This document shows positions 55,138 to 58,149 of a stretch of DNA of 64,000 bases, in pieces; positions within the stretch are counted from its first letter, which is position 1; the number at the start of each line of letters is the position of its first letter. The DNA is from Conexibacter sp. CPCC 206217 (lineage in GTDB: Bacteria; Actinomycetota; Thermoleophilia; Solirubrobacterales; Solirubrobacteraceae). The notes beneath the pieces are model-generated. The model was not told where the DNA came from. It saw only the letters and a list, made by a program, of their open reading frames with translations, and made no database searches. The position numbers were made by a program, and so were the translations under genes. The stretch spans positions 372,001 through 436,000 of the forward strand of contig NZ_JAUTDO010000003.1 in NCBI RefSeq assembly GCF_030646165.1, given 5' to 3'.

Positions 55138-56553
55138 ATGTCCAAGACCCCCCTTCGTCTCGTCCTGCTTGCGCTGCTCGCACTGCTGCTGATCCCGGCG
55201 GCGGCATCCGCGGCCGGCACGATCCGTCTCACCTCCGACCACTTCAGCGTCAACGAAGGTGACGGCAACGCCGTCATCACGATCGTCCGCGACGACGTCC
55301 GCGAACGTGGCGAGATCCGCTACGACGCCTACTACGACCGCAGCGCGGAGGCCAACCAGGACTGGAAGCCGGTCCAGGGCACGATCAGAATCGATCCGGG
55401 CGTCGCCGAGGCCTCCTTCACGATCCCGATCATCGACGACACGATCGTCGAGGGTCCCGAGACCGTCAAGGTCGGCATCTACGGGCCCTACAACGCCAAG
55501 CTCGGCGAGCCCAACCGCGCGATCCTGACGATCGTCGACAACGACGCGATCGGGACGCCCGACCTGCGCGACGACGCCAACCCGCTCGCGCTCCCGGTCG
55601 CGCCGACCAACGGCAACCCGCTCTTCGGCGCGCGCTTCTTCGTCGACACCAAGTGGAACCTCGCCCGCGTCGCGATGCAGAAGTACCGCCGCGCGAAGGG
55701 CGTCCAGCAGCTCAGAGTGATCGCCGACCAGCCGGAGACGAAGCGCTTCGGCACCTGGACGAAGGCGCCGCGGCACGAGGTCGCGACGCTGCTGCAGCGT
55801 GTCCAGACCGAGGATCCGGGTGCCGTCCCGCTGCTGGCCACCTACCGCCTCAAGCACCTGCAGTGCGGTGGCGTGGCCGACTCGCCGGCCGACGTCGCCG
55901 CGTACAAGCGCTGGTACGACGAGTTCGCGCTCGGGATCGGCAACCAGCCCGTCGTCCTCTTCTACGAGATCGACGCGCTGATCACGATGAAGTGCCTCTC
56001 CGGCCCGGGCCGCGCGCGCCGCATCGAGGAGGTCAAGTACGCGATCGACGTGCTGTCGAAGCTGCCGCGCGCGGTCGTCTACGTCGACGCCGGCAGCGGT
56101 CTCGCGCACGGCGCGCCCTACATAGCGGCGAAGCTGCGCCAGGTCGGCGTCAACAAGATCCAGGGCTTCTTCACCAACGCGACGCACCAGGACAGAACGC
56201 TGAAGGAGATCAAGTACGCGCGTGACCTCGTCAAGCGCACGGGCGGCACCGCCCACTACGTGATCAACACGTCCGGCAACGGCAGGGGCCCGCTGGTCCC
56301 GAAGGACCGCGTCAGGGACGGCAACTCGTTCCGCTGCAACGCGCCCGGCCGCGGCCTCGGCCCCAAGCCGACGTCGAACGTGCCGGCGAAGTACCGCGGG
56401 CTCGACGGCCTCTTCTGGATCGGCAACCCCGGCCGCTCCGCCGGCCCCTGCGCGCAGGAGCTGTACCCGGGCCAGACGATCCCCGCGACCGGCACCTTCT
56501 GGCTGCAGTACGCGCTCTCGCTGATCAAGAACGCCGACTTCCGCATCACCTGA
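55138..56553 (+). CDS. Secreted Calx-beta + GH6-like protein (first of pair)
   Basis: 471 residues. Signal peptide (1-25). A single Calx-beta domain follows (about 26-137: FSVNEGDGNAVITIVRD, IIDDTIVEGPETVKVGIYG, ILTIVDNDA). Residues 150-470 follow glycosyl hydrolase family 6: DQPETKRFGTW, GIGNQPVVLFYEIDAL, AVVYVDAG, HYVINTSGNGRGPL, LGPKPTSN, GLDGLFWIGNPGRSAG. Cysteines 243, 286, 400 and 438 fit the two GH6 disulfides. Asp 279 in EIDAL aligns with the proton donor (Asp 221 of T. reesei Cel6A). The RDC Asp (175) is Gln 242 here, and the D of the ESDG motif (401) is Ala 435. Normal cellulase activity is therefore doubtful; a glycan-binding or altered-specificity role is possible. Confidence 0.85.
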   Translation: MSKTPLRLVLLALLALLLIPAAASAAGTIRLTSDHFSVNEGDGNAVITIVRDDVRERGEIRYDAYYDRSAEANQDWKPVQGTIRIDPGVAEASFTIPIIDDTIVEGPETVKVGIYGPYNAKLGEPNRAILTIVDNDAIGTPDLRDDANPLALPVAPTNGNPLFGARFFVDTKWNLARVAMQKYRRAKGVQQLRVIADQPETKRFGTWTKAPRHEVATLLQRVQTEDPGAVPLLATYRLKHLQCGGVADSPADVAAYKRWYDEFALGIGNQPVVLFYEIDALITMKCLSGPGRARRIEEVKYAIDVLSKLPRAVVYVDAGSGLAHGAPYIAAKLRQVGVNKIQGFFTNATHQDRTLKEIKYARDLVKRTGGTAHYVINTSGNGRGPLVPKDRVRDGNSFRCNAPGRGLGPKPTSNVPAKYRGLDGLFWIGNPGRSAGPCAQELYPGQTIPATGTFWLQYALSLIKNADFRIT

Positions 56554-56614
56554 TCCGGAATTCGCGGACCCAGGTCCGCCGTTCGTCCGCTCCAAGGCTC
56601 CAATAGCTCACCAA

Positions 56615-56646
56615 ACCGCCCCATCGCTGACCAGCGGTGGGGCGGT
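56615..56646 (+). terminator. Hairpin between the two GH6-like genes
   Basis: ACCGCCCCATCGCT pairs with AGCGGTGGGGCGGT (14 pairs, one G-T) around the loop GACC, 62 bases after the first gene. No T-run. It suggests that the two paralogues are transcribed separately. Confidence 0.65.
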
Positions 56647-56727
56647 CGGCGTTCATGCCCTATTGAAGCCCTTGGCGGCGGGTAGTTTCGAGAGAGCTAA
56701 AACCGACGCCTGGGAGGCCGTCGACCG

Positions 56728-58149
56728 ATGTTCCGTTTCACGCATTCCCCCATGCGAGTGGTCGTGCTCGCCTGTCTGGCGCTGCTGCTCATGCTTCTGC
56801 TCGCTCCGCGCGCCGCTTCGGCCGCGGGCACCGTCAGCCTCACGTCGACCTCGTACACGGTCAACGAAGGGGCCGGCAACGCCGTCATCACCTTCACGCG
56901 CTCCACCGCCTCCACGCGCGGCGAGGTCCGCTACGGCGCCTGGCACAGAACGGCGCAGCAGTTCCAGGACTACAAGCCCGTGAAGGGCCGCGTCGACCTC
57001 GCGCCCGGTCAGACCGAGGGCTCGTTCTCCGTCCCGATCGTCGACGATCCGCTCGTCGAGGGCAGAGAGACGATCGCAGTCGGCATCTTCGGCACCTATC
57101 CCGAGAGAGTCGGCAGACCGGACCGCGCGATCCTCACGATCGAGGACAACGACGCGATCTCGACCGATCCGCGCGACAGCGTCAACCCGCTCGGACTCAA
57201 CCCGGCGCCGACCGACGGCAACCCGCTGTCCGGCGCGCGCTTCTACGACAACCCGTCGCAGACGATCGCGGGCGTCTACGCGAACCGCATCAAGCGCAGC
57301 AAGCCGGGCGCGGCGAGAATGCTCTCGGCGATCAGCTCCCAGCCCGAGTCCAAGCGCTTCGGCAGTTGGAACGACCGCCCCGGCTACGTCGTCGCGAAGT
57401 ACCTCGCGCAGGCGTACAACGACGACCCGGGCGCGATCCCGCTGCTGGCGACCTACCGGCTCAAGCACCTCACCTGCCACCGCGTCAGCGACTCTGCCAG
57501 AGAGGCCGCAGCCTACAAGCGCTGGTACAGCGACTTCGCGAACGGGATCGGCAACCAGAGAGTCGTGCTCTTCTACGAGATCGACGCGCTGATCACCGCG
57601 CCGTGCCTGTCCGGCAGAGGCCTGCAGGTGCGCATCGACGAGATGCGCTCCGCGATCGATTCGCTCGCGAGGCTGCCGCACGCGGTCGTGTACGTCGATG
57701 CCGGCGCCAGCGACGCGCACCACCCGAGATTCATCGGCTCACTGCTGCGCAAGGTCGGCGTCAACAAGATCCAGGGCTTCTTCACCAACTCCACGCACCA
57801 CAACCGCACGACGAAGGAGATCCGCTACGCCGACGGCCTCTCCCGCGCGACCGGCGGCAAGCACTACGTCGTCAACACCGCCGTCAACGGCAAGGGCGCG
57901 CTGCGGCCGAAGAACAAGGTCGAGTTCGGCAACTCGATCCGTTGCAACCCGAGAGGCCGCGGCCTCGGTCCCAAGCCGACGTCGAACGTGCCGCCGCAGT
58001 ACCCGCGGCTCGACGGCCTCTTCTGGATCGGCAACCCCGGCCGCTCCGCCGGCAACTGCGGCACGTCGAGAAACGCGCCACCGACGGGCACGTTCTGGCT
58101 CGACTACGCGCTCATGCTGATCAAGAACGCGGACTACCGGATCCGGTAG
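56728..58149 (+). CDS. Secreted Calx-beta + GH6-like protein (second of pair)
   Basis: 473 residues, same plan as the upstream gene and alike over its whole length: signal peptide (1-32), Calx-beta domain (about 34-145), GH6-like domain (about 155-473). Conserved pieces include QPESKRFGSW, YRLKHLTC, GIGNQRVVLFYEIDAL, RGRGLGPKPTSN and LFWIGNPGRSAGNC. Cysteines 250, 293, 406 and 444 are kept. Asp 286 is the proton-donor position; the RDC Asp is Thr 249 and the ESDG Asp is Ala 441. Arginine is AGA 11 times and AGG once. GGGAGG lies 12 bases before the ATG. Convergent with dxs, whose stop is one base away. Confidence 0.85.
   Translation: MFRFTHSPMRVVVLACLALLLMLLLAPRAASAAGTVSLTSTSYTVNEGAGNAVITFTRSTASTRGEVRYGAWHRTAQQFQDYKPVKGRVDLAPGQTEGSFSVPIVDDPLVEGRETIAVGIFGTYPERVGRPDRAILTIEDNDAISTDPRDSVNPLGLNPAPTDGNPLSGARFYDNPSQTIAGVYANRIKRSKPGAARMLSAISSQPESKRFGSWNDRPGYVVAKYLAQAYNDDPGAIPLLATYRLKHLTCHRVSDSAREAAAYKRWYSDFANGIGNQRVVLFYEIDALITAPCLSGRGLQVRIDEMRSAIDSLARLPHAVVYVDAGASDAHHPRFIGSLLRKVGVNKIQGFFTNSTHHNRTTKEIRYADGLSRATGGKHYVVNTAVNGKGALRPKNKVEFGNSIRCNPRGRGLGPKPTSNVPPQYPRLDGLFWIGNPGRSAGNCGTSRNAPPTGTFWLDYALMLIKNADYRIR

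What the first reader, a model, noticed from the sequence alone, without database searches (positions are those of the whole stretch)
55138..58149. Tandem secreted Calx-beta + GH6-like proteins with an altered catalytic centre
Both proteins carry a signal peptide, one Calx-beta domain and a GH6-like domain. The probable proton-donor Asp (279 and 286) and all four structural cysteines are kept. The Asp of the RDC motif is Gln 242 in one and Thr 249 in the other, and the Asp of the ESDG motif is Ala in both, with Glu changed to Arg. The same acid positions are lost in both copies, so this looks like a selected feature and not decay. The pair may bind a glycan, or act on it by a different mechanism. 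Calx-beta fused to a GH6-like domain is unusual to my knowledge. Residue equivalences to T. reesei Cel6A (Asp 175, 221, 401) are from memory.
Basis: partly seen in the sequence, partly recalled or inferred. Interest (0 to 1): 0.8.

Follow-up and report, generated by a model that had tools for sequence, protein, structure and literature searches.

The report
Remodelled, secreted cellulase-family protein pair
Two neighbouring genes in a soil bacterium related to Conexibacter encode secreted proteins with the fold of a well-known cellulase family, but the usual sugar-cutting and sugar-gripping residues are gone and a new conserved set has taken their place, except for one acid that is kept in every relative examined; this suggests a changed substrate or chemistry and not a broken gene.

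Summary
Both ORFs are intact, carry a signal-peptide-like N-terminus and match Pfam Calx-beta and GH6 well above cut-off. AlphaFold models superpose on M. tuberculosis Cel6 (Z 31-33). Sequence alignments place no acid at the Cel6A Asp175 site (Gln242/Thr249) or the Asp401 site (Ala435/Ala441); the proton-donor Asp (279/286) and four Cys are kept. The finding is larger than a pair. Every genome of the genus searched has such genes, the tandem locus sits at a conserved place (tlyA...dxs), and 55 altered GH6-like proteins, all from Solirubrobacterales, form one branch (SH-aLRT 99 with long rows removed). Asp175, Arg353 and Lys395, invariant in 52 canonical GH6, are lost in all; the donor Asp is kept in 56 of 56. 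In the Conexibacter clade the old substrate-contact positions are more conserved than the rest of the domain, but in new states (Trp135->Arg, Glu399->Arg, Ser181 position->Asp248). The Asp175 position itself drifts, so 'Gln/Thr' is not the selected feature. Best reading: a GH6-derived protein with a rebuilt pocket, acting on or binding a different, perhaps anionic, glycan. Hydrolysis versus binding only is undecided.

The parts
55138..56553 (+). Protein 1 (471 aa): signal peptide - Calx-beta - GH6-like
56728..58149 (+). Protein 2 (473 aa): same architecture; 59-60% identical to protein 1
55138..55215 (+). Probable signal peptide of protein 1 (residues 1-26, ...ASAA)
   Evidence: sequence inspection; helix 6-17 then low confidence in the model
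55213..55545 (+). Calx-beta domain of protein 1 (26-136); putative Ca2+ ligands E40, D75, D100, D101, E105, E108, D134, D136
   Evidence: Pfam; alignment to CALX CBD1; Foldseek rmsd about 1.4 A to CBD1 structures; ligand roles from general knowledge
55612..56541 (+). GH6-like domain of protein 1 (159-468)
55744..55746 (+). Arg203 at the Cel6A Trp135 (-2 subsite) position; 13 of 13 in Conexibacter clade
55861..55863 (+). Gln242 at the Cel6A Asp175 (water-wire base) position; variable Q/T/S/R/E in the clade
55879..55881 (+). Asp248 at the Cel6A Ser181 position (orients the attacking water); 13 of 13 in the clade; candidate relocated base
   Evidence: role of Ser181 from PMC6091422
55972..55974 (+). 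Asp279, kept proton donor (Cel6A Asp221); 56 of 56 altered homologues
56434..56442 (+). Arg433-Ser434-Ala435 at the Cel6A Glu399-Cys400-Asp401 positions
56824..57153 (+). Calx-beta domain of protein 2 (33-142); putative Ca2+ ligands E47, D81, D106, D107, E111, E114, D140, D142
   Evidence: motif positions
57217..58137 (+). GH6-like domain of protein 2 (164-470)
57472..57474 (+). Thr249 at the Asp175 position
57490..57492 (+). Asp255, equivalent of Asp248
57583..57585 (+). Asp286, kept proton donor
58042..58050 (+). Arg439-Ser440-Ala441 at the Glu399-Cys400-Asp401 positions

Best explanation
A secreted, probably Ca2+-binding, two-domain protein (Calx-beta + GH6-derived barrel), tandemly duplicated. 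SHOWN by sequence comparison: GH6 ancestry and fold; loss of the water-wire base (Asp175), Arg353, Lys395, the glycone-side Trp135/Trp367/Glu399 and Asp401; retention of the proton donor Asp221 (279/286), Asp263, Asn305 and Tyr169; a new conserved pocket set (Arg203, Asp248, Asn377, His350, Arg399, Gly429, Arg433). INFERRED: it is still a glycan-active protein, and slightly more likely than not to be a slow or re-specialised inverting glycosidase rather than a pure binder. Asp279 protonates the leaving group. Asp248, on the site of the serine that holds the attacking water in Cel6A, may act as the base, or a longer water wire does. The Arg-rich -2/-1 side suits an anionic sugar (uronic acid or phosphate-bearing glycan) better than cellulose. 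The Calx-beta domain would be a Ca2+-stiffened spacer or attachment module.
For: Fold and homology. Donor Asp kept in 56 of 56 altered homologues while Asp175 (0 of 56), Arg353 (0 of 56) and Lys395 (0 of 56), each 52 of 52 in canonical rows, are gone. The donor is not needed for folding, since D221A mutants are crystallised (1hgy, 4ax7), so its retention points to function. In the Conexibacter clade 16 of 21 contact positions are at least 92% conserved versus 108 of 284 other positions (Fisher p 7e-4); with narrower sets of 17 or 11 positions p is 0.010 and 0.006. Asp248 sits on Ser181 in two independent alignments and is invariant. Mayes et al. 2016 (PMC6091422): Ser181 side chain and Asp401 backbone position the attacking water, and D175A keeps 2-3% activity, so the base is not absolutely needed.
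Against: Lys395, Glu399 and Asp401 bind the -1/-2 sugars in Cel6A, and with them and Arg353 lost a -1 sugar may not be held productively. Asp248 is mostly D/N in the sister group and absent in three other altered clades, so a common relocated base is not supported across the clade. No coordinates were available to measure Asp248-Asp279 geometry. No expression, ligand or activity data. The anionic-ligand idea rests only on Arg substitutions.
Confidence: 0.42

Rival explanations
1. Binding-only pseudo-glycosidase (lectin-like): the rebuilt cleft recognises a glycan or other ligand and does no chemistry; the kept Asp hydrogen-bonds the ligand. Comparable to heparanase-2 or chitinase-like proteins.
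For: Base, Arg353, Lys395 and mostly Asp401 lost; cleft conserved in new states; a non-catalytic-looking companion domain (Calx-beta); tandem duplication, a usual route to pseudoenzymes (PMC6549527 abstract).
Against: Donor Asp kept in 56 of 56 although other pocket residues differ widely between clades; pure binders often lose the donor acid (general knowledge).
Confidence: 0.4
2. Ordinary cellulase/beta-glucanase that works through a water wire without Asp175, as the D175A mutant of Cel6A does.
For: D175A keeps 2-3% activity (PMC6091422); the genome also has GH9 and GH5 matches.
Against: Glycone-side residues that hold cellulose (Trp135, Trp367, Lys395, Glu399, Asp401, Arg353) are replaced, some by Arg.
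Confidence: 0.08
3. Decaying GH6 cellulase genes without function.
For: dN/dS (0.33-0.60 between orthologues) is higher than for neighbouring housekeeping genes (0.15-0.30); one copy in a permafrost MAG carries a stop.
Against: Intact frames and a kept locus in the genus, one old clade, cleft more conserved than the rest, cysteines and donor Asp kept.
Confidence: 0.03
4. The equivalences are misaligned and other acids fill the Asp175/Asp401 places in three dimensions.
For: The loop after Cys243 differs by one residue and Asp248 lies close by in sequence; region 382-399 of the model is low confidence.
Against: Cys243, Cys400 and Cys438 anchor the loops; phmmer, the profile search and MAFFT agree; the fold superposes at Z 31-33.
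Confidence: 0.07

Closest known systems
GH6 endoglucanase Cel6 (CelA1) of Mycobacterium tuberculosis, 1up0/1uoz
   Same: Whole barrel (280 residues, Z 31-33, 34% identity), proton donor, DAG Asp, Asn, four Cys
   Different: RDC Asp, DTSRNG Asp/Arg, Trp of WCN, Lys and Glu/Asp of WIKxPGESDG and the -2 Trp all replaced
GH6 cellobiohydrolase Cel6A of Trichoderma reesei and endoglucanase Cel6A of Thermobifida fusca (1tml)
   Same: Fold and the Asp221/Asp117 donor
   Different: No Asp at the 175/79 or 401/265 positions
Calx-beta domains of NCX1/CALX (CBD1)
   Same: Fold (rmsd 1.3-1.5 A) and, by alignment, most Ca2+ ligands
   Different: Secreted bacterial protein, single domain fused to a GH6-like barrel; one DDD Asp is Asn
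Pseudo-glycosidases: chitinase-like proteins, heparanase-2, beetle GH28 pseudoenzymes (papers)
   Same: Glycosidase fold with catalytic residues lost in a conserved lineage
   Different: GH6 family, not reported there as far as the held papers show; here the general acid is kept

Membership tests
GH6 (PF01341) by homology | Profile match above curated cut-off | tested here: met
   90.6 and 76.4 bits against a cut-off of 27
GH6 (PF01341) by homology | GH6 barrel fold | tested here: met
   Z 31.4/32.5 to 1up0
GH6 cellulase (catalytic) | General acid Asp221 | tested here: met
   D279/D286; 56 of 56 altered homologues
GH6 cellulase (catalytic) | Water-wire base Asp175 | tested here: not met
   Q242/T249
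GH6 cellulase (catalytic) | Asp401 and Glu399/Lys395 at subsites -1/-2 | tested here: not met
   A435/R433/G429 in protein 1; A441/R439/G435 in protein 2
GH6 cellulase (catalytic) | Two disulphide pairs (four Cys) | tested here: met
   C243, C286, C400, C438 in protein 1
GH6 cellulase (catalytic) | Inverting hydrolysis of beta-1,4-glucan | not testable with these tools
   needs an assay
Calx-beta (PF03160) | Profile match above cut-off and CBD1 fold | tested here: met
   48.7/43.3 bits vs 27; Foldseek rmsd about 1.4 A for protein 1
Calx-beta (PF03160) | Ca2+-binding acidic cluster | tested here: inconclusive
   Acids aligned with CALX CBD1, but which of them bind Ca2+ is from memory and binding was not measured

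The most novel reading that the evidence does not exclude
A large clade of GH6-derived enzymes, found here only in Solirubrobacterales, has rebuilt the glycone subsites for a non-cellulose, probably anionic glycan, and in its Conexibacter branch has moved the catalytic base from the Asp175 site to the site that orients the attacking water (Asp248): natural variants that would test the disputed identity and need of the GH6 base.
Probability: 0.2. Interest if true: 0.8.

Novelty: new variant of a known kind. Interest (0 to 1): 0.55.

Why it matters
The catalytic base of GH6 is a long-standing question (PMC6091422). A natural clade that keeps only the acid, in many sequences and with several different solutions in place of Asp175, offers ready-made variants to test whether a base is needed, where it can sit, and how a cellulase barrel is turned to a new substrate or to binding only. 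It also warns that a Pfam GH6 hit in these soil bacteria should not be counted as a cellulase.

Tried and rejected
Decay: rejected by the conservation pattern. Gln/Thr as the selected residue: rejected, the column is variable. A common relocated base at the Ser181 site for the whole altered clade: rejected, it holds only in the Conexibacter clade and partly its sister (D/N), not in three other clades. Functional hint from neighbours: none; the pair lies among housekeeping genes (recN, nadK, tlyA, dxs, ispA, nusB) in the genus. Promoter/terminator scan: nothing above shuffles. GH48 in the own genome: no match, but that search had no positive control. Literature: no held paper joins Calx-beta with GH6 or was found by title and abstract to describe altered GH6 of Conexibacter/Solirubrobacter; many subscription papers are not held.

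Full report
OBSERVATION. Both ORFs exist as described. Each has a signal-like N-terminus, one Calx-beta domain and one GH6 domain, both well above Pfam cut-offs. The closest solved structure is M. tuberculosis Cel6 (E 6e-39; profile E 7.6e-66). AlphaFold models of protein 1 (pLDDT 82.7) and protein 2 (81.5) superpose on it with Z 31.4 and 32.5. The Calx-beta part of protein 1 matches CBD1 of NCX1/CALX at about 1.4 A.

CATALYTIC CENTRE. Alignments to 1up0 and 1tml, the profile alignment and a MAFFT alignment of 97 sequences agree. Asp175 -> Gln242/Thr249; Asp221 -> Asp279/Asp286 (kept); Asp401 -> Ala435/Ala441; Glu399 -> Arg433/Arg439; Lys395 -> Gly; Trp135 -> Arg; Trp367 -> Arg; Trp269 -> Ala; DTSRNG -> NTxxNG. 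Mayes et al. 2016 (PMC6091422) give the roles: Asp221 is the acid; Asp175 accepts the proton through one bridging water; the Ser181 side chain and the Asp401 backbone place the attacking water; Asp137, Asp401, Glu399 and Lys395 hold the -1/-2 sugars; D175A keeps 2-3% activity.

HOW WIDE. The window's genome (5.94 Mb, 28 contigs) has a third copy on another contig and no canonical GH6. All six other genomes of the genus searched have two or three copies. Named matches are Conexibacter and Solirubrobacterales only. In the genus the genes lie downstream of recN-nadK-tlyA; where the fetched stretch shows it, dxs-ispA-nusB follows. Four of these genomes (the window, G003, G004, G005) carry two full-length copies there, G006 a full copy plus one without Calx-beta, and G001/G002 a single copy at this place (lengths). 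A survey of 399 genomes of the class, with sequences fetched and read, finds altered GH6-like proteins in about 33 genomes counting the genus (my count), all in this order. Canonical GH6 occur in other genomes of the class and, in some genomes, beside altered ones. In a phylum sample of 396 genomes the loci read outside the class were canonical apart from single departures in a few rows such as L124 and L130.

ONE OLD CLADE. With the trait columns masked, the altered proteins group together (57 rows, SH-aLRT 84). Without the long rows 55 altered rows lie on one side of a branch with support 99. The Conexibacter clade (13 rows) has 99. SH-aLRT from a quick search is the only support; no bootstrap was run.

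WHAT IS SELECTED. In 56 altered sequences the donor Asp is kept in 56 and Asp263 is D/E in 56, while Asp175, Arg353 and Lys395 (52 of 52 in canonical rows) are kept in none; Asp401 is kept in 14. Canonical rows were defined by holding Asp175 and Asp401, so those two columns are 52 of 52 by construction; Arg353, Lys395 and the donor are not. In the Conexibacter clade 16 of 21 contact positions are at least 92% conserved against 108 of 284 others (p 7e-4). The set of 21 included some motif positions that I added after seeing the alignment; smaller sets give p 0.010 (17 positions) and 0.006 (11 positions). The Asp175 column itself is Q/T/S/R/E, so that site is free to vary. Conserved new states are Arg203, Asp248, His350, Asn377, Arg399 (12 of 13), Gly429 and Arg433. 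dN/dS between orthologues is 0.33-0.60 versus 0.15-0.30 for neighbouring genes; this simple method is rough at such high G+C, so it is used only to say that selection is purifying but looser.

MECHANISM. Two readings remain close. (a) A re-specialised glycosidase: the donor is kept everywhere although it is not needed for folding (D221A crystal structures 1hgy and 4ax7 appear), and in Conexibacter an invariant Asp248 takes the place of the serine that orients the attacking water. (b) A binding-only pseudo-glycosidase: most residues that hold the -1 sugar and the base are gone. I lean slightly to (a), 0.42 against 0.40. The Arg residues on the glycone side suggest an anionic ligand; this is inference from residue type alone. 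Other altered clades have other solutions: one clade in family f1 (rows L081-L101) has a conserved Pro-Trp-Glu just before the place where RDC stood, and another (L078-L100) and the f2 clade have no consistent acid there.

KNOWN OR NEW. Homology to GH6 is certain, but membership in the catalytic GH6 cellulases fails on two defining residues. Pseudo- or re-tooled glycosidases are a known kind (chitinase-like proteins, heparanase-2, beetle GH28: papers). I found no report of one in GH6, nor of Calx-beta with GH6, in the held literature, which is incomplete. Hence: new variant of a known kind.

Noticed in passing
G000:C28:91523-92311 (locus L002, L102): Third Calx-beta + GH6-like copy in the window's genome, on another contig; nearest to the second copy of Conexibacter arvalis in the tree.
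   Followed up: partly
L039 6654-7784 / L076 (G383:C547): Tandem partner of an intact copy in a permafrost MAG is split by a stop codon, i.e. one copy decaying (or an assembly error).
   Followed up: no
L081, L083-L085, L087, L091, L097-L099, L101: A separate altered GH6-like clade with a Pro-Trp-Glu motif near the lost RDC and Gln in place of the Glu before the donor Asp.
   Followed up: no
L010, L011, L024, L061: GH6 proteins of family f2 in which Asp175 is replaced (RSC, or no RDC motif) while Lys395 and Asp401 are kept: separate losses of the base outside the altered clade.
   Followed up: no
L035 6327-7421, L042, L043: Altered GH6-like copies without a Calx-beta domain in relatives, so the fusion is not obligatory.
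   Followed up: partly
G000:C1:806375-807658 and 858004-858804: GH9 and GH5 matches in the window's genome.
   Followed up: no
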